DNA of 50,700 bases from positions 1 through 50,700 of the IMG/VR virus record IMGVR_UViG_3300028024_000181, one strand, 5' to 3'. Of the stretch, positions 10,187 to 19,074 are shown in pieces (positions within the stretch are counted from its first letter, which is position 1; every line of letters begins with the position of its first letter). The notes beneath the pieces were generated by a model that saw only the letters and a program-made list of their open reading frames with translations, searched no databases and was not told the origin of the DNA. The position numbers and the translations under genes are program-made. This DNA is from a virus.

Positions 10187-10615
10187 TTAGTGGGTGGTGC
10201 GCGGTGCGGCGGCAGGCGAATTGAAGATGGCGCGGAGGATCCCGGACAGAGCGAGATCGCCGAACGCGGGCGTGAGCTGCGTCGCGTAGGCCTGGCGCTC
10301 GCGCATGATCTGCAGCGCACGCCGGAACGATGCATTGCTCTGCGGCGCGTCGAGCCACATGGGGAGCCAGTTGCCGACGCCGTATAGGGCGTCATAGCGG
10401 CGCAGCATCGCCGCGCGGGTCATCCGGACAGGGGCCGCGATAGCGACGTCGTCCTCGTTCATCACATGCTCAGCGCCCATCGCGAACCGGGAATGGGGAA
10501 GCGTCCAGGTGTCGAACCTGATGCAGTCAATACGCTGCCCGTCTTCGCCGAGCGCCACGATCGACTGCAGGTGATCGGTCGGCCGTGAGTCGTTGAAAAT
10601 GAAGATCGTTTTCAT
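10187..10615 (-). CDS. Hypothetical protein
   Basis: This 142-residue protein is not recognised. The N-terminal half reads like a beta-rich domain (MKTIFIFNDSRPTDHLQSIVALGEDGQRID). The C-terminal half is helical, with AMLRRYDALYGVGNWLPMWLD and RALQIMRERQAYATQL. It lies 17 nt upstream of the ParB-domain gene, and its start overlaps the preceding stop by 4 nt. Confidence 0.65.
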   Translation of the reverse strand: MKTIFIFNDSRPTDHLQSIVALGEDGQRIDCIRFDTWTLPHSRFAMGAEHVMNEDDVAIAAPVRMTRAAMLRRYDALYGVGNWLPMWLDAPQSNASFRRALQIMRERQAYATQLTPAFGDLALSGILRAIFNSPAAAPRTTH

Positions 10616-10770
10616 GGCTTGAGTCCCTTCGTGTGGTGCGTCGCACGCCGACGCCCGGCGGCGCGCAGAAGCGCGCGAACAGTTCGATGTGTTTCCCGCA
10701 GCGACGCGTTACGTGCGTCGAGATCGGCGAGCAGCTGCCAGAGAGTTGGTGTGGGCTTGCGTCGCTGCAT
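10612..10770 (-). CDS. Small basic hypothetical protein
   Basis: The product is about 52 residues long and strongly basic (MQRRKPTPTLWQLLADLDARNASLRETHRTVR...RRRATHHTKG), which suggests nucleic-acid contact. The frame is open upstream to an ATG at 10860, which would add 30 residues. That extension runs through an apparent intrinsic terminator, so I prefer the ATG at 10770, which has an AGGA site about 8 bases upstream. The function is unknown. Confidence 0.55.
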   Translation of the reverse strand: MQRRKPTPTLWQLLADLDARNASLRETHRTVRALLRAAGRRRATHHTKGLKP

Positions 10771-10781
10771 TACGGATCCTG

Positions 10782-10808
10782 AAAAAACGGGCGCTGTGAG
10801 AGCCGCCC
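10782..10808 (-). terminator. Intrinsic terminator inside the leftward operon
   Basis: On the minus strand a GC-rich stem (GGGCGGCT pairing with AGCGCCC, one bulged G) is followed by GTTTTTTC. The T-run ends 11 bases before the start codon at 10770. It should block leftward transcription unless antitermination or read-through occurs. Confidence 0.7.
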
Positions 10809-10856
10809 CCAAGCTCGCCGACCGGGGGTCACAACCGACGAGAGACCACTGAAAAA

Positions 10857-11531
10857 TCATTTGCGCAGCTCGACCAGCGCGATGAGTGCGCGGAAGTGCT
10901 CCGGACGCAGATCGACGGCGCCGCTTCCGGTCCGGATGCTGATATCGCCATTCGGCCAGGACACGAGCGAAACGTCGTCGATGGAAATCGTGAAGTCGGG
11001 CTCACGTGCGAGCTCCGGCGACGGCTTTGGTGGATCTGCTGGTGATGGCGAGGCCTCCGCAGCCTTGGCGGCAGGCTTCTTTCGCATCGCGACGATTGCG
11101 GAAGCTGCCTCGAAATGGCTGACCGCGACCGGCGCAGTCTTTGCTTCAGCCTTTGGCTTCGGCGCGACCTGGCTTCCGATGCAATATTTCCCGCCGTCAC
11201 GAACGATCCGGCCGTCGTGGAGCGCGCCCTGAATGAATGGGGAAATGCCGCCTTTATTGGAAATGCCGAGCGCCTGGCAGATAACTGCGCCAGCCGCTGG
11301 GCCATGCTCCTTCAGATATGCGATTACCTCATCAGCTCGCGTGAGCCGTTTCGTCTCGGGCAGGTTAGCGATCGTTGCTTTCTGAAGGCCGTTGAGCGGA
11401 TTGGCCCACGGATTCGTTGGTGCGGGGGCGCGCTCGATCCCGCCGACGTCGGCGTCCGTGACCGCGTCCCCTGCAGCAGCTTCGGGCTCCGCGGCGCGCG
11501 GAAACATGTTGGGGTGGCCGACGTTCTTCAT
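10857..11531 (-). CDS. Putative winged-helix protein
   Basis: This 224-residue protein has a central winged-helix-like unit (residues about 62-118: LTRADEVIAYLKEHGPAAGA, ICQALGISNKGGISPFIQGALHDGRIVRDGGKYCIG). The signature of a basic recognition helix plus a wing is clear, so DNA binding is likely. A Lys/Ala/Pro linker then leads to a C-terminal beta-rich domain (DFTISIDDVSLVSWPNGDISIRTG). I cannot name the family. It may regulate the early operon. Its ATG overlaps the upstream stop by 4 nt and an intrinsic terminator follows downstream. Confidence 0.65.
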   Translation of the reverse strand: MKNVGHPNMFPRAAEPEAAAGDAVTDADVGGIERAPAPTNPWANPLNGLQKATIANLPETKRLTRADEVIAYLKEHGPAAGAVICQALGISNKGGISPFIQGALHDGRIVRDGGKYCIGSQVAPKPKAEAKTAPVAVSHFEAASAIVAMRKKPAAKAAEASPSPADPPKPSPELAREPDFTISIDDVSLVSWPNGDISIRTGSGAVDLRPEHFRALIALVELRK

Positions 11532-12259
11532 GACAGCTGCCCCACGTTGACGGCAGCGCTGTGGCGCGGGAAGAAACGCGAGGCCCGTGCGACCATCGTG
11601 TCGAGCTCGAGCACGGCCTGCTCGCCCGATGCGTGTGCCTGCTCGTACAGAGCCGGTAATTCACTTTCGAAGCTCTCGCGCACTTCGTCACGCGTTGCGC
11701 AGCGATTGTCGAAATACCAGAAGACCTGTTCGGCCTCGCCGATGTGCAACTGGATGGTGTCGGCACCCGGCACGACTTCGTAGCTGCGCGTTACCCAGAC
11801 CATCAACACGCCGACGTCGGAATTTCCCATCAGGCACGCTGCCTTGAATTTGGCGCAGTCCTGATGCGCCGGCGGCACGACGCAGATGCGACTGACTGCA
11901 GCGGTCGGTCGAAGAACGAATGCCTTGTACTGGCCGAGCGGCTCGCCGCACACCGCGCACCGCTTGTAGTAATGGCAGGCGGCGAGATCCGGCGACGGCA
12001 GCTCGGTGGCCGGCGGCTGCGCGCGCAGTCGGACTGGCACGGCCGGCACTCCGTTACGAAGAAGCATGCTCATGGCGCTTCCTAAACCGGAGGCACGCCG
12101 CGACCGCGCCTCCGGAAGAGCCCGATCATCGTTCGCGGGGGCGGGCGGGTTGAGATTGGAGTCGAAAGCGTGGTCGAAGCGACCGGCGACAGTGGTGAGC
12201 GTCCAGGCGACGGATCCGAGAGCGACGATGGCCGAGCCGATATAGCCGAGCGTGTTCAT
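11528..12259 (-). CDS. Hypothetical membrane-anchored protein
   Basis: The product is about 243 residues. Residues 5-26 (GYIGSAIVALGSVAWTLTTVAG) form one membrane segment. A polar linker follows, then a soluble domain with a CAVCGEP metal-type knuckle, two further cysteines and LMVWVTRSYEVVPGADTIQLHIGEA. It may be two fused modules, since an internal ATG (MSMLLRNG) begins the soluble domain. The ATG at 12259 has a GGAGGA site 8 bases upstream and starts 4 nt after the preceding stop. The function is unknown. Confidence 0.6.
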   Translation of the reverse strand: MNTLGYIGSAIVALGSVAWTLTTVAGRFDHAFDSNLNPPAPANDDRALPEARSRRASGLGSAMSMLLRNGVPAVPVRLRAQPPATELPSPDLAACHYYKRCAVCGEPLGQYKAFVLRPTAAVSRICVVPPAHQDCAKFKAACLMGNSDVGVLMVWVTRSYEVVPGADTIQLHIGEAEQVFWYFDNRCATRDEVRESFESELPALYEQAHASGEQAVLELDTMVARASRFFPRHSAAVNVGQLS

Positions 12260-12263
12260 GGAG

Positions 12264-12509
12264 TCATTCCTCCGAGACAAGACGGATGCCGCGCATGGCA
12301 GCGGTCGCGGCGACGAAGTCCTGCATCGTCCGCACGTCGTTCAGCATCGTCCGGAGCATTTCCAGCGTGGCGCCCAGTTCGATCGCCGTTTCGAGCGCGT
12401 GTGCGGCGCCGCGTTGGACGAGGTGCTGCGCGATTAGCCCGGGACCGTCGAGCTCGAGCACGAGCTCGCGCGATTTATCGAAGTCGGGAATGTTGTCGAT
12501 CTTGGCCAT
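12264..12509 (-). CDS. Hypothetical small helical protein
   Basis: This 81-residue protein is acidic and largely helical (SRELVLELDGPGLIAQHLVQRG, ALETAIELGATLEMLRTMLNDVRTMQDFVAA). It is not recognised. The ATG at 12509 has GAGGA 6 bases upstream and is preferred to the ATG at 12519-12521, which lies in the ribosome-binding region. Confidence 0.6.
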   Translation of the reverse strand: MAKIDNIPDFDKSRELVLELDGPGLIAQHLVQRGAAHALETAIELGATLEMLRTMLNDVRTMQDFVAATAAMRGIRLVSEE

Positions 12510-12510
12510 G

Positions 12511-12780
12511 TCATTCCTCATCGATGTCGTTGGCGGCGCGCCGTTTGATATCGACGCATTGGTCGTCGAACCCGAGCGACGTCTGGTCGCCGATCTGGCG
12601 GCGCGGCTGTGAGCTACGGCGTGCCTTCGGGTTCGGATGGAGTTGGGCGCGGACCGCGGCCTGAACGGCGGCGCGCACTGCCGGCGAGAGCAGGGCCTCG
12701 TCGGGCTCGCCCTCGACGCCGAGCGTGCGGCAAGCCGGCGCCAGCATTTCGTCCGGGAGGCGGGTAGGAGTCGGTCGCAT
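12511..12780 (-). CDS. Hypothetical small protein
   Basis: The product is about 89 residues. It has a Pro/Leu-rich N-terminus, an Ala-rich helix (AVRAAVQAAVRAQLHPNP) and a basic patch (KARRSSQPRRQIGD) before an acidic end. It is not recognised. An Arg-rich patch in a gene near the start of a leftward phage operon could mean RNA binding, as in N-type antiterminators, but nothing else supports that. The ATG at 12780 is chosen because it does not overlap the upstream gene. Confidence 0.5.
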   Translation of the reverse strand: MRPTPTRLPDEMLAPACRTLGVEGEPDEALLSPAVRAAVQAAVRAQLHPNPKARRSSQPRRQIGDQTSLGFDDQCVDIKRRAANDIDEE

Positions 12781-12788
12781 GGCCGTTC

Positions 12789-12989
12789 TCACAGGCACCG
12801 GGTGAACGAGCACGACGAATCCCCAGCGGCCGCACGGTCCTGGTACTGCATATAGCCGAGCGTGAGCAGGTAGACGAACAGCACGCCGAGGATGGCGAGG
12901 ATGTTCCGGACGATCCGGAAAGCCGACTTCACAGCGCGAGCGCCGCGCCGGGTGTTGCCGGTGGGTGTTGCTGACTGTTGGTTGGCCAT
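12789..12989 (-). CDS. Small membrane protein, first gene of the leftward operon
   Basis: The 66-residue protein has a basic N-terminal tail (NTRRGARAVKSAFRIVRN), one transmembrane helix (about residues 30-48, NILAILGVLFVYLLTLGYM) and a short C-terminal tail with two cysteines. An N-in topology follows from the positive-inside rule. It is the first gene after the operator-controlled promoter at 13023-13052, so it should be made early. It is not recognised. Superinfection exclusion or envelope modification would be typical for such early membrane peptides, without direct evidence here. Confidence 0.65.
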   Translation of the reverse strand: MANQQSATPTGNTRRGARAVKSAFRIVRNILAILGVLFVYLLTLGYMQYQDRAAAGDSSCSFTRCL

Positions 12990-13022
12990 CGCTCGCTCCG
13001 TGGTTGCGGTGTGTTGGAGCGA

Positions 13023-13067
13023 ATAATAGAACTATCGGTTACCTTCTGTAAAGTACCGAAAGTTACC
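13023..13067 (-). promoter_or_regulatory. Leftward early promoter (PL-like) with two 16-bp operators
   Basis: On the minus strand a -35 TTTACA (13052-13047) and a -10 TATTAT (13028-13023) are separated by 18 bp. Two related sites, GGTAACCGATAGTTCT (13043-13028) and GGTAACTTTCGGTACT (13067-13052), lie 24 bp apart. The first fills the spacer and touches the -10 box, and the second touches the -35 box. The same sites with the same geometry occur at 14063-14107. Repressor binding here would block the leftward operon. Confidence 0.8.
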
Positions 13068-13140: not shown

Positions 13141-13389
13141 TCAGTGGGCCGTGATGAGATAGGTATCCAGCATGTTCGACGACACATCCAGACACCACGC
13201 GAGGACGGCTAGGACGTGCAGATCGGCAACGCGAGTCCGGCTGGGCACGATGGTGCCACCGCGTGTCACCGAAAAATGCACATCGGTCACTATCTCCTGG
13301 TCATGCTTGCGTTTTTTGCTATTCCTCGCGGCCCGGTAGGCTGCGAAGTCGACGATCTCAGGTCCCGTTCTTTCCCGTGTCATGTTCAT
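13141..13389 (-). CDS. Hypothetical protein co-transcribed with the repressor
   Basis: The product is about 82 residues (MNMTRERTGPEIVDFAAYRAARN..., then LHVLAVLAWCLDVSSNML). It is not recognised. It starts about 31 nt inside the repressor gene in another frame and is followed by an intrinsic terminator. It is therefore the last gene of the lysogenic transcript and probably expressed in the prophage state. An accessory role in immunity would be typical of this position, but it is inference. Confidence 0.55.
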   Translation of the reverse strand: MNMTRERTGPEIVDFAAYRAARNSKKRKHDQEIVTDVHFSVTRGGTIVPSRTRVADLHVLAVLAWCLDVSSNMLDTYLITAH

Positions 13390-14038
13390 GGTCACTCTCA
13401 GGTTGCGCGGCCGATCGGGTGCCGGCTCTAGCGTGTCTGGCAAAGGTAGCCGGGCTTTCAGCAACCTTGTCAGAGGAGGAGTGTGCTTCTGTGGCGCGTG
13501 CTTTAAACGGCGGATTAGAGGTGTTTTTACCCTCTTCTCGAGAGTTTTGCGCGCCAAGCATTAATAGGATCGCCGCCCGAATTGTGGGCGACATGTCAGC
13601 TTGCACGGCATGCAATGCCGCACGCAATAAAGTTGCGTCATCGTCTGTAATTGCCATGAGACGGTGCTGCCCGTCTATTTCGTGCAGGATTTTGGCAAGG
13701 GCGCGTGTGAGCTGCGGTCCCGCCTGCGACGTTCCTCGGGCGGCGTCTTCCGCACGCAATGCTGTGTCTGGCACCGTGGGCACGCTAGCGCCCCGTTTCT
13801 CGCCGCGTTCCGTTGCGAGCCATTCGAAGTTGACGCCGAGCCAATGAGCAAGGTCCATCAGGCGCGACGTCTCCGGGATTGCTTCTCCCTCCAGCCACTT
13901 TCTGGCCCCTTTCTGCGAGACGCCCATCTTCTCGCCCAGCGCCCTTTGGCGGCCAGCGCCCTTCGCGGGGAAGCGGATATCGTCCAATGCCTCGTTCAGC
14001 CGGGCCGCGAAAGCGCGTTTTTGATCGTCAGTAACCAT
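13358..14038 (-). CDS. XRE-family phage repressor (CI-like)
   Basis: The 226-residue protein has an N-terminal helix-turn-helix of the XRE type (RQRALGEKMGVSQKGARKWLEGEAIPETSRLMDLAHWLGVNFEWLATERG split over residues about 29-79). The C-terminal part is not the usual LexA/S24 peptidase fold. It is Ala/Ser-rich and lacks a visible Ser-Lys catalytic pair, so induction by RecA-stimulated self-cleavage is uncertain. It is divergent from the small Cro-like gene across a 76-bp region with two operators, the typical switch position. The promoter for this gene would fire away from operator 14063-14078 with a start point near the ATG. Confidence 0.85.
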   Translation of the reverse strand: MVTDDQKRAFAARLNEALDDIRFPAKGAGRQRALGEKMGVSQKGARKWLEGEAIPETSRLMDLAHWLGVNFEWLATERGEKRGASVPTVPDTALRAEDAARGTSQAGPQLTRALAKILHEIDGQHRLMAITDDDATLLRAALHAVQADMSPTIRAAILLMLGAQNSREEGKNTSNPPFKARATEAHSSSDKVAESPATFARHARAGTRSAAQPESDHEHDTGKNGT

Positions 14039-14062: not shown

Positions 14063-14107
14063 AGGAACAATCAGTTCTTGCCGACTGGTAACTTACGGTT
14101 CTAGAAT
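14063..14107 (+). promoter_or_regulatory. Rightward early promoter (PR-like) with two 16-bp operators
   Basis: A -35 TTGCCG (14078-14083) and a -10 TAGAAT (14102-14107) are 18 bp apart. Site AGGAACAATCAGTTCT (14063-14078) touches the -35 box. Site GGTAACTTACGGTTCT (14087-14102) fills the spacer and touches the -10 box. The 24-bp site spacing and the promoter geometry copy those at 13023-13067. The predicted transcript starts at about 14114, essentially on the ATG of the first gene. Confidence 0.8.
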
Positions 14108-14114
14108 GCTGGCC

Positions 14115-14381
14115 ATGAACCTCATCGAACAAGCCATCAAGCACGCCGGCGGCGTCACTGCCTTCACGAAGGCTTTGAACGCGCTGATCGATCGCCCTGT
14201 GACCTATCAAGCCGTGAAAAAGTGGGCGGTGAAAGGCCGCTTGCCACGGACCGAATGGACCGGCGAGTCGAACTATGCTGCGGCGATCGAGCGTTTGACC
14301 GGTGGTCAAGTGCCGCGCGAGAAGCTTCTGCACACGCTGCCAGCATCGGCGACCGCGTCGCTTCAAGAGGAGGGCGTCTAA
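14115..14381 (+). CDS. Cro/YdaS-like small HTH regulator
   Basis: The 88-residue product (MNLIEQAIKHAGGVTAFTKA, VTYQAVKKWAVKGRLPRTEW) has the layout of Cro/YdaS-like helix-turn-helix proteins that oppose CI-type repressors. It is the first gene of the rightward operon. No ribosome-binding site precedes the ATG at 14115, and the -10 box ends 8 bases upstream, so the mRNA is probably leaderless. The last codons (SLQEEGV) coincide with the first copy of a 14-bp repeat. Its stop overlaps the end of the convergent gene 14378-14689. Confidence 0.78.
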   Translation: MNLIEQAIKHAGGVTAFTKALNALIDRPVTYQAVKKWAVKGRLPRTEWTGESNYAAAIERLTGGQVPREKLLHTLPASATASLQEEGV

Positions 14382-14689
14382 GTATGCGAGTTCTGATCCA
14401 GTTTTTTCGCGTACTCGTAGGCGACGGTGTTCGCGAACTCCAGTCGAGCGCGGGAATCGATCTCCAGGCCGCGGGCATTGCACCAGGCAATGAACTCGTC
14501 GAGTTTGATGTGTGCTTTGACGACCACAAGACCCTCCGCGAGACAACGCTTGCGCATCTGCTCGGCGCTGCGCTCCCACTTCAGGAAGCTCTCCGGCAGC
14601 CCGGAGCCGTCGTTGAACACCGATCGCGCGCGATCGTATTCCGACTTCATGAACCAGCTGATCGCAATGACTTTGGGGATGTCGCTCAT
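14378..14689 (-). CDS. Antisense moron A, hypothetical
   Basis: The 103-residue protein (MSDIPKVIAISWFMKSEYDRARSVF..., ESFLKWERSAEQMRKRCLAEG) is soluble and helical and is not recognised. It runs against the rightward early operon and has its own promoter element at 14716-14736. That makes it a typical moron likely to be expressed from the prophage. The gene ends directly after the first 14-bp repeat, and its stop overlaps the stop of the Cro-like gene by 2 nt. Confidence 0.7.
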   Translation of the reverse strand: MSDIPKVIAISWFMKSEYDRARSVFNDGSGLPESFLKWERSAEQMRKRCLAEGLVVVKAHIKLDEFIAWCNARGLEIDSRARLEFANTVAYEYAKKLDQNSHT

Positions 14690-14715
14690 GTGTGAATGTT
14701 CCGTAGTGGTGACGC

Positions 14716-14736
14716 GTGTAGGAGCCGTCAATTCTA
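14716..14736 (-). promoter_or_regulatory. Moron promoter element A
   Basis: On the minus strand TAGAAT (14736-14731) is followed by CCTACAC (14722-14716), 42 bp before the ATG of moron A. The same module occurs upstream of moron C with identical internal spacing. No convincing -35 box is seen. Confidence 0.5.
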
Positions 14737-14863
14737 CGGCGAGCGAGCATCCCCACCTCTTTTCCGAATTGGCACAAGCCGCGCCGCTCCAAGAGGAGGG
14801 CGTATGACGCATCACACGTTAAGACTGACTGCGGATGCATCGGGCCTGGGAGCGTCGGTGCAG

Positions 14864-15085
14864 TTACTTTCCGAGCTTGCCAAACGCTTTCCGGAGGTCG
14901 TTGAGCGATTTGTTGACGGACTGCTCGACCTTTCTGAACTCGTTCGCGTCGACGTGCGTAACTGCACCGCAGGAACTGCAGGTGAGGTTCGGATCTGTCT
15001 TGAGCCTTCGGATTGTTTCCGTGAGTTTCTTGCGGCAGTTGCCGCAGGGAATGTCGACGGTTTGGTTGTCGAAGTTGATGGTCAT
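14864..15085 (-). CDS. Antisense moron B, zinc-ribbon protein
   Basis: The 73-residue protein has two CxxC knuckles (CGNC at residues 14-17 and CSSC at 36-39), which form a zinc-ribbon. A C-terminal amphipathic helix follows (EFRKVEQSVNKSLNDLRKAFGKL). It is probably a small nucleic-acid- or protein-binding factor of unknown target. The upstream region has TTGAGG and TAGAAT boxes and a GAGGGGAA ribosome-binding site shared with moron C. About 60 nt of featureless sequence separate its stop from the second 14-bp repeat. Confidence 0.72.
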   Translation of the reverse strand: MTINFDNQTVDIPCGNCRKKLTETIRRLKTDPNLTCSSCGAVTHVDANEFRKVEQSVNKSLNDLRKAFGKLGK

Positions 15086-15126
15086 GGGTGTTCCCCTCGC
15101 AAAGGAGATTGACGTGTGGAAACGCA

Positions 15127-15154
15127 ATTCTAGCGCGGGGTGGAACACCCTCAA
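15127..15154 (-). promoter_or_regulatory. Moron promoter element B
   Basis: On the minus strand a -35 TTGAGG (15154-15149) and a -10 TAGAAT (15132-15127) are separated by 16 bp, with the ATG 42 bp downstream of the -10 box. A variant CCACAC follows the -10 box. This is the best-formed of the three moron promoters. Confidence 0.6.
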
Positions 15155-15211
15155 TTTCGTGATCGGCGGCGCGGGCAACGCGGTTGCGCAGCAAGAGGAG
15201 GGCGTCTGATG

Positions 15212-15727
15212 TCATCGCGCCATCAACGCAATGAGCTTCGAATAGTCCGGCGGAGGGAGGAAACCGGCGAAATATTCGAATTCGCAGTCCGCACAGACAA
15301 GGTATTGGGCGCTCTTCACTCGAACCGGTTGCAGGTAGCCCGTCTTATCCGCGTTCACGCATTTCGGACATCTGTAGTGAATTGGCTCTTTGTCGGCGTA
15401 CGCCGACTTCAGGCGATAAACAACGGGTCCCTCGGTTATCGGAGTGAGTTCGTATCGAGAAAGCTCTCGCTTCTTAGCCTTCAGCTTTGCAATTTCCTCA
15501 TTAGCCGCCTTCAGATCGTGCTCAAGCGTTGCCACGCTCTTGATGAGACGTACGTTGTCCTCCGACGTTTGCAGCGTTGCGACGTTCAACTCGCGGATCT
15601 CGTCAACGAGGGTTTGCGTTGCTTTTTCGATCACAGACTCGTCGTGGGTCGCGACTCCTTTTGTGATCAAGCCCAGCGCACCGTTGACGGCAGCGAGGAT
15701 GCCAGAGACGGTAGTTGCAACAGCCAT
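15212..15727 (-). CDS. Antisense moron C, coiled coil plus zinc ribbon
   Basis: The 171-residue protein has an N-terminal hydrophobic Ala/Gly-rich helix, a long coiled coil (about residues 40-90, including NVRLIKSVATLEHDLKAANE) and a C-terminal zinc ribbon (CPKC at 120-123, CADC at 145-148). This coiled-coil/ribbon layout is seen in small phage and bacterial accessory proteins of unknown function. It ends 6 nt after the third 14-bp repeat. Its start lies behind a GAGGGGAA site and a TAGAAT-type promoter. Confidence 0.72.
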   Translation of the reverse strand: MAVATTVSGILAAVNGALGLITKGVATHDESVIEKATQTLVDEIRELNVATLQTSEDNVRLIKSVATLEHDLKAANEEIAKLKAKKRELSRYELTPITEGPVVYRLKSAYADKEPIHYRCPKCVNADKTGYLQPVRVKSAQYLVCADCEFEYFAGFLPPPDYSKLIALMAR

Positions 15728-15755
15728 GGGGGTTCCCCTCGTTCTGAAAAGGTAG

Positions 15756-15776
15756 GTGTAGGAACCACCGATTCTA
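15756..15776 (-). promoter_or_regulatory. Moron promoter element C
   Basis: On the minus strand TAGAAT (15776-15771) is followed by CCTACAC (15762-15756), 44 bp before the ATG of moron C and with the same internal spacing as element A. A clear -35 box is missing. The rest of 15777-15904 holds an inverted repeat and the ribosome-binding site of the next rightward gene. Confidence 0.5.
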
Positions 15777-15840
15777 AACGGGGAGCGAACCCCCGCCATT
15801 TTTGGCGCGGGCCGCGTGGCGGCGCGTGAATTCACGAGGA

Positions 15841-15861
15841 TTTGCATGGTGTCCATGCAAA
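15841..15861. repeat. Perfect 9-bp inverted repeat upstream of the CII-position gene
   Basis: TTTGCATGG and CCATGCAAA are separated by TGT and lie 44 bp before the ATG at 15905. On the plus strand AATTTT follows, so it could be a weak terminator. Its symmetry and position also suit an operator for a dimeric regulator. Confidence 0.6.
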
Positions 15862-15904
15862 AAATTTTCGACGCCGGCCGACCGGTGTAGCAAGAGGTGT
15901 AACG

Positions 15905-16315
15905 ATGGAATTTGACTATTGGGGTGCCGCCGCGCACCCGCGTGGAAAGGCGATCCACCCTCCCGAACCGACCGCGCCGCTCACCCCGGCGCGTTTGCGT
16001 TTCCTGCCGCGCGGCGAGATCGAGGCCTGCGCAACATTTCGCGATGCGTGCGTGCTCGCCTGGAAGAACCGGCAACACCCGGGGATGACCACGACCTACC
16101 TCGCGTCTGTTTGCGATCTGACGCAGCAGCACGTGTCCGAGTACTTCCACGCCGACGAGCGCGACGAGAAGGGTCGTAAGCGACGGCAATTGCCGGCTGA
16201 CAAGGTCGGCGTGGTGCAGGAGCAGCTCGGCAATTGCGCGATCGGGCAATGGCTGGCGCGCGACATGGCCGTGCGCCTCGTCGAGGAGTTCTTCGCGGCG
16301 GAGAACGTGCGGTGA
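15905..16315 (+). CDS. Putative DNA-binding regulator (CII position)
   Basis: The 136-residue protein contains a probable helix-turn-helix (MTTTYLASVCDLTQQHVSEYF, residues about 61-81). The helical segment LPADKVGVVQEQLGNCAIGQWLARDM follows and ends in VRLVEEFFA. It occupies the CII position, after the Cro-like gene and before replication. It is not clearly a CII homologue, so the role as early regulator is inferred from the motif and place. The ATG at 15905 has an AAGAGG site. It overlaps the next gene by 4 nt (GTGA). Confidence 0.65.
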   Translation: MEFDYWGAAAHPRGKAIHPPEPTAPLTPARLRFLPRGEIEACATFRDACVLAWKNRQHPGMTTTYLASVCDLTQQHVSEYFHADERDEKGRKRRQLPADKVGVVQEQLGNCAIGQWLARDMAVRLVEEFFAAENVR

Positions 16316-16503
16316 CGAAAAGCGAAGCCATGCGGCTGGCAAAAGAGGCGCTCCACGCGTTGCGCGCCCAGTCAGGAGACGAAGAGACGGTGAAGGAAAT
16401 GTTCATCTGGAAGATGCAGGCGGACCGGCGGCTTCACGAGGCGCTCACGGTGCTGGGCACCGCCCGCTTATGGGAATCGCAGTTGCAGCACCTTCGTCAC
16501 TAA
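16312..16503 (+). CDS. Hypothetical small helical protein, GTG start
   Basis: The 63-residue product (MTKSEAMRLAKEALHALRAQ, MFIWKMQADRRLHEALTVLG) is helical and unrecognised. The GTG at 16312 forms a GTGA overlap with the previous stop and has GGAGAA 8 bases upstream. An ATG at 16330 is a weaker alternative. Confidence 0.6.
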   Translation: MTKSEAMRLAKEALHALRAQSGDEETVKEMFIWKMQADRRLHEALTVLGTARLWESQLQHLRH

Positions 16504-16513
16504 CAGGGCAGTC

Positions 16514-16669
16514 ATGAACGCGGATCTGGTTGGCACGGTTGTGTTGCGCACGTTCGCGGTGATGGGCGTCGCTGTGGCGTTCATGCCGGCGATTGCGCGC
16601 TCGCGTGTGCGGTTTGGTTTCACGAGCTGTCTCGCGCTCGCTGCCGTGCTGATCTGGTTCAGGCCGTAG
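16514..16669 (+). CDS. Small two-helix membrane protein
   Basis: This 51-residue product has two hydrophobic stretches (LVGTVVLRTFAVMGVAVAFM and FTSCLALAAVLIWF) joined by a basic loop (ARSRVRFG). It should be a hairpin membrane protein with the loop in the cytoplasm. It lies between close neighbours in the same direction, with 10 nt before and 7 nt after. The ribosome-binding site is weak. It is not recognised. Confidence 0.5.
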   Translation: MNADLVGTVVLRTFAVMGVAVAFMPAIARSRVRFGFTSCLALAAVLIWFRP

Positions 16670-16676
16670 GAGTCAC

Positions 16677-16940
16677 ATGTCGTTTCACTTATCGAATCTC
16701 GCCTGGAGCGTCGAGCTCCGCCACGCACAGAAGATAGTCCTGCTGTGCCTTTCACATCTAGCGCTGCAGAGCACATGTGAATGTTCTGTCACGGTGCGCA
16801 GGCTCGCGTTCATGTGTGGCATGTCGGACAGTGGCGTGCGCGACCAGCTCGCGGCCCTGACAGCGGTTGGCCTGGTCGACGAGATCCCGGGCAATGGCGA
16901 GACCTTCTATCGCGTCAACGTGGTGGCGCGCGATGCCTGA
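16677..16940 (+). CDS. Winged-helix/HTH protein near the replication genes
   Basis: The 87-residue protein resembles a winged helix-turn-helix: VELRHAQKIVLLCLSHLAL as helix 1, VTVRRLAFMCGMSDSGVRDQLAALTAVGLVDEI as the HTH, and NGETFYRVNV as the wing. The fold matches the N-terminal domain of lambda O-type initiators. It may therefore be a stand-alone DNA-binding subunit of the replication module or a regulator. It overlaps the next gene by 8 nt. Confidence 0.65.
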   Translation: MSFHLSNLAWSVELRHAQKIVLLCLSHLALQSTCECSVTVRRLAFMCGMSDSGVRDQLAALTAVGLVDEIPGNGETFYRVNVVARDA

Positions 16941-17508
16941 GACGAGCAAGAAGGGCACGGCGGCCCGCCCACAGATCAACGCAGGCCTCGTCGAGGCCGC
17001 TATACGCCGTCACGTCGACCCGCGCGGCGCCCACACGCTCATTCCCGAAGCTGAAATTCGCTGGGGCGTCGGCTCGCAGCGCGGCGTTTATCGCGCGGAC
17101 TTCGTCATGATCACGCGCTCCAGTTACGCGACGGAGCTCGAGGTGAAAGTATCGCTCGCGGACTGGCGCAAGGATCTGTCGAAGCCGAAGTGGGTTGGCA
17201 TGCCCGCCTGGATCACGCGCTTCATCTACGTGGTGCCCGAGCAGCTCGGCATTCCTGAGTGGGTGCCCCCGCATGCCGGCGTGTGGCATGTGCGCCCGCG
17301 GCCGTCGCAATACGAAGCGTGGGAAGGGCCGCGGCGCCCCGACGGCTATCAGATCGTGGTCGCCCGCGCGCCGCACGTGCTCGGCCGCGAAAAGCTACCA
17401 GCTGCCGTGCTCGGCACGTGGCTGCGCAATCTCTATTACCGCTACTGGGAACAGCGGGTTCATCTTGAGGGCCGCATTGCGCGGCACGTGCGGGAGAGCG
17501 TTGCATGA
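16933..17508 (+). CDS. PD-(D/E)XK nuclease-like protein (MmcB-like)
   Basis: The 191-residue product has a core YRADFVMITR...YATELEVKVSLADWRKD, giving an Asp, then Glu-x-Lys (E-V-K), the PD-(D/E)XK nuclease signature. RFIYVVPEQL follows. The arrangement is like MmcB-type DNA-repair nucleases. It may process DNA during replication or recombination. The C-terminal half is less typical, with a conserved-looking YQIVVARAPHVL and a basic tail. The start at 16933 overlaps the preceding stop by 8 nt, and the end overlaps the replication initiator by 4 nt. Confidence 0.7.
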   Translation: MPETSKKGTAARPQINAGLVEAAIRRHVDPRGAHTLIPEAEIRWGVGSQRGVYRADFVMITRSSYATELEVKVSLADWRKDLSKPKWVGMPAWITRFIYVVPEQLGIPEWVPPHAGVWHVRPRPSQYEAWEGPRRPDGYQIVVARAPHVLGREKLPAAVLGTWLRNLYYRYWEQRVHLEGRIARHVRESVA

Positions 17509-18611
17509 GAGTCGCAGACGTATTGCGCGAACTCGGTCGCCCGATCGCCTACTACCCGTTCCTCGCTCGATACCTCGGCGGCGTGAATGCTGCCGTGTTC
17601 TTCTGCCAGATCTTTTACTGGCAGGACAAGGCTACCAGCGAATTCGGCGTGCATAAGACCGTCGATGAGCTCGAGCACGAGACCGGCCTGTCCTACGAGG
17701 AACAGCGCGCCGCCCGCACGAAGTTGCGTGCCGCCGGTGTGCTGATCGAGACCGCCAAGCGCATCGAGCATCGCACGTACTTCCGCGTCGACGAGGATGC
17801 GCTCGAATTGCTGTTGTCTTCCGAGCTACCCGCACGTAAGGCGAAAAAGTCATCGGTGGGCACATCGGGAAAGTCCACTTCCCGAAATGGGAAAAGTCCA
17901 TCTCGGGAAGTGGACAAAGTCCATTCCGCGAACTTGGAAAAACCCATGCCGCCGGATGGGGAAAACCGCGCCCGCGGGAAGGGAGATCCCCATTCCGTTA
18001 ACGGTACAGAGATTACAGCAGAGACTACAGCAGCAACGCGCGCGGCCGAGGCTGTGGACAACTCTGCTGTTGCTGCTGCTGAAGATGAAAAAGCCCAACC
18101 GACCCCCGAGCGCGAATTGACGGACTTGCTGGTGTCGCTCGAGGCCGCTCGGGGCAAATCGCTGAGCGTCGACCGGAATCGCGACCGTGTGCACGTGCTG
18201 ACGTGGGTCGGCAAGGGCGTGACGGCGGCGCGACTGCGGGAAGCCCACGCGTTGGCCGTGGCGGCGCGATCGCGAGTGGGCGACGAACGGCCGACGTACG
18301 CGGGGTTCGTCTCGACGTTCATCGACGCAGAGGCCGCGGCGCCGGTGACGGCTGAGTCACAAGCACAGGTCGACTGGTGGCTGGCAGGCGAGGAAGTGCT
18401 GGTGGCGGCCGGCGAACGTTTCGGCGCCCGGCCGAAGCGGCGCGACGAGCCTTTGCCGCTGTACCGCGCGGTGGTGGCTAGAGCGGCGGGTAAGGGGCCG
18501 TGGATCGACGCGATCCTGCGCGACGCTCAGCGCGGCGGTGGACAGTTCCAGCAGATGATCGTGGCGACGCTCGGTGAAGCGCTGCTGCCTGTCGATTGGT
18601 ACGCATCATGA
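17505..18611 (+). CDS. Replication initiator-like protein (lambda O position)
   Basis: The 368-residue product has an N-terminal winged-helix domain. Its parts include AAVFFCQIFYWQDKATSEFG, VDELEHETGLSYEEQRAARTKLRAAGVLIE and RTYFRVDEDALE, features shared with phage replication proteins. A low-complexity linker rich in Lys/Ser/Arg (residues about 113-165) is encoded by iteron-like DNA repeats. A C-terminal helical domain ends the protein and may recruit the host helicase or its loader. In lambda the origin also lies inside the initiator gene. No phage helicase is evident downstream, so host DnaB would be needed. Confidence 0.78.
   Translation: MRVADVLRELGRPIAYYPFLARYLGGVNAAVFFCQIFYWQDKATSEFGVHKTVDELEHETGLSYEEQRAARTKLRAAGVLIETAKRIEHRTYFRVDEDALELLLSSELPARKAKKSSVGTSGKSTSRNGKSPSREVDKVHSANLEKPMPPDGENRARGKGDPHSVNGTEITAETTAATRAAEAVDNSAVAAAEDEKAQPTPERELTDLLVSLEAARGKSLSVDRNRDRVHVLTWVGKGVTAARLREAHALAVAARSRVGDERPTYAGFVSTFIDAEAAAPVTAESQAQVDWWLAGEEVLVAAGERFGARPKRRDEPLPLYRAVVARAAGKGPWIDAILRDAQRGGGQFQQMIVATLGEALLPVDWYAS
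17867..17979 (+). repeat. Iteron-like repeats inside the initiator gene (putative origin)
   Basis: Four to five degenerate 22-23-bp units occur in tandem, at 17867, 17889, 17911, 17934 and 17957. They share GGGAAAAGTCCAT-like cores. Within them a perfect 13-bp inverted repeat, GTCCACTTCCCGA at 17873-17885 and its complement at 17903-17915, is separated by 17 bp. The location in the linker region of an initiator-like gene matches the lambdoid origin arrangement. Confidence 0.6.
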
Positions 18612-18832
18612 GCACCCAAACCGAAAACGCATTCTGGCTCGTGTGGTCGCCGACCGGCAGGGCGCCGCCGCGGTACCGCCACGCGAGCAAGCAGAGCGCC
18701 ATCACCGAGGCAGAGCGGCTCGCGCGCGCTCACCCGGGGCAACTGTTCGTCGTGCTCGAGCCGATCGCCGGGCGGCGCGTGGACAACATGGTGCGCACGA
18801 CCTACGTTGACGACAAGGAGATTCCGTTTTGA
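18608..18832 (+). CDS. Hypothetical small protein
   Basis: The 74-residue product (NAFWLVWSPTGRAPPRYRHASKQSAITEAERLARAHPGQLFVVLEPIAGR) looks like a small alpha/beta protein that recurs in prophages of this group. The function is unknown. Its ATG overlaps the initiator stop by 4 nt. Its own stop overlaps the next TTG start by 4 nt. Confidence 0.65.
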   Translation: MSTQTENAFWLVWSPTGRAPPRYRHASKQSAITEAERLARAHPGQLFVVLEPIAGRRVDNMVRTTYVDDKEIPF

Positions 18833-19074
18833 TCGCTAACGACATCACGGACTGGCTGTCGGCCGCGGCGCTAATCGCACTGATATCCGGCGACGGGCCG
18901 CGGAGCTTACTACGCCACGCGGCCAGCGCTTTATACCTCGGTCACGTCGCTGCGCCGGCGACGCCTGACCCGTTCGTCCAGCTGCTGCTCACTGGCGAGT
19001 GCTTCAGGCCGCTCTATGAATACGAACGCGCACTCATCCAGTTCAAGCTGGCTTATCCGGCGGTCTTCAAATGA
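18829..19074 (+). CDS. Hypothetical protein with TTG start
   Basis: The 81-residue product is helical (ITDWLSAAALIALISGDGPRSLLRHAASALYLG, YERALIQFKLAYPAVF) and not recognised. Translation from TTG is supported by an AAGGAG site 8 bases upstream and by the 4-nt overlap with the previous gene. The stop overlaps the next ATG by 4 nt. Confidence 0.6.
   Translation: MIANDITDWLSAAALIALISGDGPRSLLRHAASALYLGHVAAPATPDPFVQLLLTGECFRPLYEYERALIQFKLAYPAVFK

What the first reader, a model, noticed from the sequence alone, without database searches (positions are those of the whole stretch)
14364..15905. Three antisense genes inserted at copies of a 14-bp junction repeat
CAAGAGGAGGGCGT, the end of the Cro-like gene plus a ribosome-binding sequence, recurs at 14364, 14790 and 15192. 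Each copy is followed by one minus-strand gene and its promoter. The rightward frames between them end in the same QEEGV residues. This looks like a stepwise cassette array in which new morons enter at the same target and duplicate it. It breaks the expected direct Cro-CII neighbourhood.
Basis: partly seen in the sequence, partly recalled or inferred. Interest (0 to 1): 0.75.

Follow-up and report, generated by a model that had tools for sequence, protein, structure and literature searches.

The report
Prophage cassette array with promoter-hairpin leaders
Between two control genes of a Paraburkholderia-type prophage sit three backward-facing accessory genes, one of them a relative of a known anti-phage protein, and each carries the same kind of promoter inside a hairpin, which would let the gene be made only from its own promoter; the set of genes changes from prophage to prophage.

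Summary
CAAGAGGAGGGCGT occurs exactly at 14364, 14790 and 15192 and nowhere else in the window, and each copy is followed by one minus-strand gene. Relatives carry zero, one, two or three such genes between the Cro-like and the downstream gene. A related prophage (L064) shares only gene 2, as a 430-bp block (98.8%) running from one 14-mer to the next. The 14-mer is not a new target site: it is the stop/ribosome-binding end of Cro-like genes of many unrelated types. Insertion with target duplication is not shown.

The larger result is what the genes share. Each starts with an ~80-nt imperfect hairpin with an invariant TAGAAT in one arm and the ribosome site and start codon in the other. About 40 such leaders precede many unrelated proteins; 16 of 21 base pairs covary; Rfam has no match. 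Best reading: own transcripts start at the loop and are translated, while read-through transcripts fold and hide the start, as in T4 homing endonucleases. Gene 3 is a Rip1 relative (anti-phage pore protein), so the array probably stocks defence genes for the lysogen and keeps them silent in lytic growth. Expression is untested.

The parts
13358..14038 (-). phage repressor (HTH), same direction as the cassette genes
   Evidence: the ORF listing; weak RstR-type match
14102..14107 (+). -10 (TAGAAT) of the rightward promoter in front of cro
   Evidence: promoter scan TTGCCG-18-TAGAAT
14115..14381 (+). Cro-like gene ending QEEGV*
   Evidence: Pfam YdaS/P22_Cro, phrog_35, coordinates
14364..14377 (+). 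14-mer copy 1, true end of cro
14378..14689 (-). gene 1, phrog_4753, homolog of Bcep176 gp17
14684..14766 (-). leader hairpin W1 (degenerate outer stem), TAGAAT 14736-14731
   Evidence: model R2 30.4 bits, E 7.5e-5; fold
14753..14803 (+). likely remnant of another cro 3' end (ELAQAAPLQEEGV*) including 14-mer copy 2 (14790-14803)
   Evidence: similarity to L004 cro tail, fraction of random places as good 0.007
14864..15085 (-). gene 2, zinc-ribbon protein, weak match to Com-like translational regulators
   Evidence: phrog_6417 E 6e-6; NCBIfam YnfU-like below cut-off
15080..15162 (-). leader hairpin W2, TAGAAT 15132-15127
   Evidence: model R2 45.6 bits
15192..15205 (+). 14-mer copy 3
15212..15727 (-). 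gene 3, Rip1/HkaP family (phrog_1244)
   Evidence: PDB 9oox Rip1: profile E 6e-22, phmmer E 9.5e-7, fold E 3.5e-6
15722..15806 (-). leader hairpin W3, TAGAAT 15776-15771
   Evidence: model R1 85.9 bits E 1e-18
15841..15861 (.). palindrome TTTGCATGGTGTCCATGCAAA conserved before the CII-position gene
   Evidence: all relatives with the close CII-position gene
15891..15904 (+). CAAGAGGTGTAACG, ribosome-binding stretch of the CII-position gene, partly like the 14-mer
   Evidence: sequence
15905..16315 (+). gene in the CII position (no clear family match)

Best explanation
The stretch is a variable accessory-gene region between cro and the next early gene of a family of Burkholderiaceae prophages. 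Each antisense gene is a cassette made of the gene plus a common ~80-nt leader. The leader is an imperfect hairpin: the -10 box TAGAAT lies in its 5' arm, the predicted transcription start falls at the conserved loop (CUYCYACAC), and the Shine-Dalgarno and start codon lie in its 3' arm. A transcript from the cassette's own promoter lacks the 5' arm and is translated. A leftward read-through transcript, from the next cassette or from beyond, carries both arms, folds and hides the start. The rightward early transcript covers the same hairpin from the other strand, with its loop complementary to the 5' end of the cassette mRNA, and can silence it in lytic growth. The result would be expression in the lysogen only, which suits defence genes such as gene 3 (Rip1 family). 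Cassettes are exchanged by recombination at short shared sequences: the stop/Shine-Dalgarno end of cro (the 14-mer) on one side and the leader and conserved palindrome on the other. Shown: the repeats, the leader and its covariation, the variable cassette content, the block exchange, the Rip1 homology. Inferred: promoter use, translational masking, lysogen-only expression, and how cassettes are gained.
For: 36 leaders from 32 records aligned: 16 of 21 pairs change on both sides; 88 such cells against 26.4 (sd 4.5) shuffled, 0/500; 5-14 in slid registers. TAGAAT in 32 of 33 leaders, the other TAGACT; it is also the -10 of the cro promoter. Predicted start region unpaired 0.26 in read-through RNA and 0.53 in own-promoter RNA, higher in 30 of 32. 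No minus-strand terminator between cassettes, so read-through is expected. Block exchange bounded by 14-mers. Cro-like genes of unrelated type share the same end. All 5 viral contigs holding the extended 14-mer also hold the leader. Gene 3 is a Rip1 relative; Rip1 is reported as a prophage protein that blocks incoming phage (PMC12908700). Bcep176 has the leader at the head of an antisense operon beside its CII-like gene, including a gene 1 homolog.
Against: No expression data. The -35 is poor (1-4 of 6), so the promoter may need an activator. Leader W1 has lost its outer stem and fails the accessibility test. The hairpin is more stable in the rightward strand (28 of 32), so its main role could be in that RNA, or in DNA. 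Outer-stem changes go straight from A-U to G-C without G-U intermediates. Only gene 3 has a defence homolog; the other cassette proteins are of unknown function or unmatched.
Confidence: 0.6

Rival explanations
1. The leader is a DNA operator-promoter: the covarying arms are half-sites for a phage or host regulator, and the hairpin is a by-product of dyad symmetry.
For: Outer-arm changes are double and symmetric without G-U steps; poor -35 suggests an activator or other regulator.
Against: Covariation runs through the whole hairpin up to the loop, with internal loops in between; arm spacing varies (matches of 83 to 94 nt); one arm always contains the Shine-Dalgarno and start codon.
Confidence: 0.2
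2. The functional hairpin is in the rightward early RNA (processing site, antisense RNA or antitermination-like element), and the start-codon masking on the other strand is incidental.
For: Rightward strand more stable in 28 of 32 (mean -34.9 against -30.6 kcal/mol, p 1e-5); A.C mismatches far outnumber G.U on the gene strand (59 to 13); GNRA-like GGCGAAAGCC in L073/L074 on that strand.
Against: The asymmetry can come from the purine-rich Shine-Dalgarno arm; the start codon is always in the stem.
Confidence: 0.25
3. The leftward promoters are the pRE equivalent, activated by the neighbouring regulator, and serve mainly to make repressor; the cassette genes ride along.
For: The element lies upstream of and divergent from the CII-position gene, also in Bcep176 beside a CII-like gene; weak -35; repressor lies downstream on the same strand with no terminator found between.
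Against: The window has three such promoters; relatives without any cassette (L007, L009, L011) lack the element; the CII-position protein matches no CII family.
Confidence: 0.15
4. One reading: new genes insert at the 14-mer and duplicate it.
For: Exact copies at each cassette boundary; block from 14-mer to 14-mer in L064.
Against: The 14-mer is a functional gene end in unrelated cro genes; copy 2 carries more of a cro tail than the 14-mer; L068 tandem cassettes lack it; no integrase or transposase was noticed in the cassettes.
Confidence: 0.15

Closest known systems
T4 and Aeh1 homing-endonuclease leaders (I-TevI, I-TevII, I-TevIII, segB, mobE), also T4 genes e and soc
   Same: Hairpin hides the ribosome site on transcripts from upstream; a promoter placed so that own transcripts lack the 5' arm; used on invading genes in a phage operon (PMC2988022).
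   Different: Here one shared, covarying element precedes dozens of unrelated proteins, sits antisense to the early operon, and the presumed switch is lysogeny against lytic growth, not early against late. No sequence relation was tested.
IS10 pIN, RNA-IN and RNA-OUT
   Same: Promoter and start region of one gene overlap a hairpin made from the other strand (PMC5006887).
   Different: No transposase; no dedicated outward promoter identified; the opposite RNA would be the phage early transcript.
Start-associated sequences (SAS/ESAS) of cluster K mycobacteriophages
   Same: Short repeated Shine-Dalgarno-like sequences in front of a subset of genes, some with inverted repeats (PMC3203893).
   Different: There the repeat and inverted repeats belong to the same gene; here the 14-mer serves the rightward strand and the hairpin the leftward gene. 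Sequence differs.
Rip1/HkaP (HK446, HK620)
   Same: Gene 3 is homologous; in HK620 and HK446 the gene is also antisense inside an early operon.
   Different: About 25-30% identity; a different leader there; defence by gene 3 untested.
Phage morons and boundary-sequence mosaicism
   Same: Accessory genes between genes that are neighbours in relatives; exchange at short conserved junctions (postulated for Paraburkholderia prophages, PMC5968390).
   Different: No terminators found, gene antisense, and a conserved structured leader common to all.

Membership tests
Moron | present between genes that are adjacent in relatives | tested here: met
   absent in L007, L009, L011; variable elsewhere
Moron | own promoter | tested here: inconclusive
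   invariant TAGAAT, poor -35, no transcript data
Moron | own terminator | tested here: not met
   no minus-strand terminator between cassettes
Rip1/HkaP family (gene 3) | homology to Rip1 over most of its length | tested here: met
   profile E 6e-22; phmmer E 9.5e-7; phrog_1244
Rip1/HkaP family (gene 3) | fold | tested here: met
   9oox is the best hit, Foldseek E 3.5e-6, TM 0.39-0.51, model pTM 0.46
Rip1/HkaP family (gene 3) | blocks phage by a pore on a phage ring protein | not testable with these tools
   needs experiment
T4-type masked-start leader | Shine-Dalgarno and start codon in a conserved hairpin | tested here: met
T4-type masked-start leader | promoter positioned so own RNA lacks the 5' arm | tested here: inconclusive
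   -10-like box in the 5' arm in all leaders; start not mapped
IS10 RNA-IN/RNA-OUT system | dedicated promoter for a short antisense RNA | not tested
   no search for a rightward promoter inside the cassettes beyond the consensus scan
SAS/ESAS | 13-bp GGGATAGGAGCCC with adjacent 17-bp inverted repeats on the same gene | tested here: not met
   sequence and arrangement differ
Rfam families | match to a described RNA family | tested here: not met
   only two chance matches, at E 9 or above
Mu Com (gene 2) | Com family membership | tested here: inconclusive
   phrog_6417 E 6e-6 over a zinc ribbon; several other zinc-ribbon families match more weakly

The most novel reading that the evidence does not exclude
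The leader is a portable, previously undescribed regulatory element of temperate Burkholderiaceae phages that makes any attached gene lysogen-only by combining a promoter inside its own masking hairpin with antisense silencing from the early operon, and the cassette arrays it heads are collections of prophage-encoded anti-phage genes.
Probability: 0.4. Interest if true: 0.8.

Novelty: new variant of a known kind. Interest (0 to 1): 0.62.

Why it matters
Temperate phages have to express defence and exclusion genes in the lysogen without harming their own lytic growth. A common promoter-hairpin module in front of dozens of unrelated accessory genes would be a concrete, testable answer. It also gives a way to find such genes: anything behind this leader is a candidate prophage defence or lysogenic conversion gene, and many of them have no database match. 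The 14-mer shows how a functional gene end can double as a recombination junction through which immunity regions and cassettes are swapped.

Tried and rejected
A dedicated insertion system: no integrase or transposase was noticed in the cassettes and the 14-mer is an ordinary gene end. Integron attC-like site: considered because of the hairpin, rejected since the element is at the 5' end of the gene and contains its start codon; no specific test was run. Invertible promoter: considered because of the inverted arms; in the leaders examined the promoter points at the gene. Copy 3 as a cro-tail remnant: not significant (0.40). L007 model hit (21-22 bits) rejected: wrong fold, no gene. Several first pattern hits (L019, L021, L024, L025, L027, L034, L036) were chance matches without the hairpin. 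A leader related to ours in front of hkaP/rip1 of HK620/HK446: not found. Phage-record searches with the DNA and with the CII-position protein found nothing. A class-wide genome search (369 genomes) with model R2 found none; the draw contained no positive genome, so this does not prove absence.

Full report
Observation. The 14-mer CAAGAGGAGGGCGT is present exactly at 14364, 14790 and 15192 and not elsewhere in the window; no other 14-mer occurs three times. Each copy is followed by one minus-strand gene: gene 1 (14378-14689), gene 2 (14864-15085) and gene 3 (15212-15727). Rightward frames through all three copies end QEEGV*. The window is a 50.7-kb virus record; its nearest relatives in named genomes are prophages of Paraburkholderia, Caballeronia and Burkholderia.

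What the 14-mer is. In relatives the same sequence, about C[AC][AC]GAGGAGGGCGTCTGANATG, forms the end of Cro-like genes: the last codons (HEEGV*, QEEGV*, SEEGV*, QTEEGV*), the stop and the Shine-Dalgarno sequence for a following rightward reading frame. The Cro-like proteins that carry it are of several unrelated types, so it is a conserved module end. An exact scan of 2.9 million viral contigs for GAGGAGGGCGTCTGANATGCG found five contigs, all of which had been found independently through the cassette leader. Window copy 1 is the true end of cro. Copy 2 is preceded by ELAQAAP, like the end of the L004 cro (ELAQVAP); 0.7% of random places match any of the cro tails as well. Copy 3 has no significant cro similarity beyond the 14-mer.

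Variation among relatives. Between cro and the next gene there is no minus-strand cassette gene in L007, L009 and L011; one in L004, L005, L010, L012, L017 and many others; two in L064 and L068; three here. The most telling pair is the window and L064. Upstream (10189-13028) and downstream (16503-18846) they are 96-98% identical; in between only window 14780-15209 matches L064 4602-5031 (98.8%), that is the gene 2 cassette from the end of one 14-mer region to just past the next, plus a weaker match from the gene 3 leader to the palindrome (15724-15868, 79%). In L064 gene 2 directly follows an unrelated cro. It fits recombination at shared gene ends as well as insertion, and the two tandem genes of L068 have no 14-mer between them.

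The shared leader. Every minus-strand cassette gene examined in these regions starts with a similar ~80-nt sequence. In the window: W3 15722-15806, W2 15080-15162, W1 14684-14766. Aligning 12 canonical copies gave a covariance model that recovered W3 (E 1e-18), W2 (6e-6) and, weakly, W1. Genome searches found it in 13 of 144 genomes of the Paraburkholderia group, 10 of 398 genomes of the family, 2 of 58 of the Caballeronia group, and none of 369 genomes spread over the class (the last draw held no positive genome). A second model aligned 36 copies from 32 records; four more came from a pattern scan (L087 is weak). Some members were found by an exact core pattern, which inflates core conservation, but those found by the models or through the CII-position gene were not. 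Rfam has no match.

Its structure. The leader is one long imperfect hairpin. Its 5' arm holds TAGAAT (32 of 33, the other TAGACT), its loop reads about YTYCYACAC, and its 3' arm holds the Shine-Dalgarno and the first base of the start codon. In 36 sequences, 16 of 21 pairs change on both sides, with 88 double-changed cells against 26.4 in shuffles (0 of 500) and 5-14 in slid registers. The alignment was fitted to the model, which leans towards the structure; the slid and shuffled controls and the individual folds support it beyond that. Examples: TGAGGGTTC/GAACCCTCA, TGGGGATTC/GAATCCCCA, GGGTGTTCC/GGAACACCC, and in W1 a replaced inner stem CCGTAG/CTACGG.

How it probably works. TAGAAT is also the -10 of the cro promoter here. 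A start about 7 nt downstream falls at the loop, so own transcripts would lack the 5' arm. Predicted unpaired probability of the start region is 0.53 in such RNA and 0.26 in read-through RNA, higher in 30 of 32 leaders. No leftward terminator was found between the cassettes, so read-through from one cassette into the next, and on towards the repressor, is expected. The rightward early RNA folds even better (28 of 32) and its loop is complementary to the predicted 5' end of the cassette mRNA. Together this predicts translation only from the cassette's own promoter when the rightward operon is silent, as in a lysogen. The masking part matches the documented T4 homing-endonuclease leaders (PMC2988022); the two-strand layout resembles IS10 (PMC5006887). 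The weak -35, the decayed W1 and the absence of expression data are the main gaps.

What the genes are. Gene 3 belongs to phrog_1244 and matches HkaP of HK620, annotated there as putative superinfection exclusion. It also belongs to the Rip1 family: profile of seven leader-bearing homologs against PDB 9oox E 6e-22, gene 3 alone 9.5e-7, predicted fold best hit 9oox, HK446 Rip1 with T6 small terminase. Rip1 is reported as a prophage protein that blocks incoming phage, with a terminase ring capped by 12 copies (conference report PMC12908700). In HK620 and HK446 the gene is also antisense inside an early operon. Seven diverged members of this family carry the leader. Gene 1 belongs to phrog_4753, with a homolog in the antisense operon of phage Bcep176, which is headed by the same leader beside the CII-like gene. 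Gene 2 is a small zinc-ribbon protein with a weak Com-like match. Other cassettes encode a KTSC protein, a phrog_3983 protein and several small proteins without any match; PADLOC gives only one marginal match.

Verdict. The unexpected part is the common, covarying promoter-hairpin leader. It is a new variant of a known kind of control, spread over many accessory genes.

Noticed in passing
15841-15861: Palindrome TTTGCATGGTGTCCATGCAAA followed by AAATTTT is conserved in the relatives just before the CII-position gene, even when everything to its left differs; operator or attenuator, unknown.
   Followed up: partly
L084 upstream of hkaP and L090 upstream of rip1: HK620 and HK446 rip1 leaders hold two hairpins with the same loop CCCCTACAG, resembling the CCTACAC loop of the Burkholderiaceae leader.
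   Followed up: partly
L004, L005, L010, L064, L067; L062, L063, L035: After the 14-mer many relatives have a rightward frame starting MRRIRSMLIPVRGQI or MRxFKSKFARR that runs into the antisense gene; possibly a conserved small early protein.
   Followed up: partly
L009, L010, L011 (about 800 bases left of the CII-position gene): Some relatives have rightward genes in this region in place of, or beside, the antisense cassettes (MKSLFGI..., MKRLA..., MRAQLLHSVID...); several of their ends carry the same stop/Shine-Dalgarno pattern (KEGA*, KEGGA*).
   Followed up: no
14804-15112: A 102-aa rightward frame (MTHHTLRLTADASG...) starts at 14-mer copy 2 and fully overlaps gene 2; conserved in L064, coding status unclear.
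   Followed up: partly
17864-17932: Three tandem 23-nt repeats (ATCGGGAAAGTCCACTTCCCGAA and variants) inside the gene at 17505-18611.
   Followed up: no
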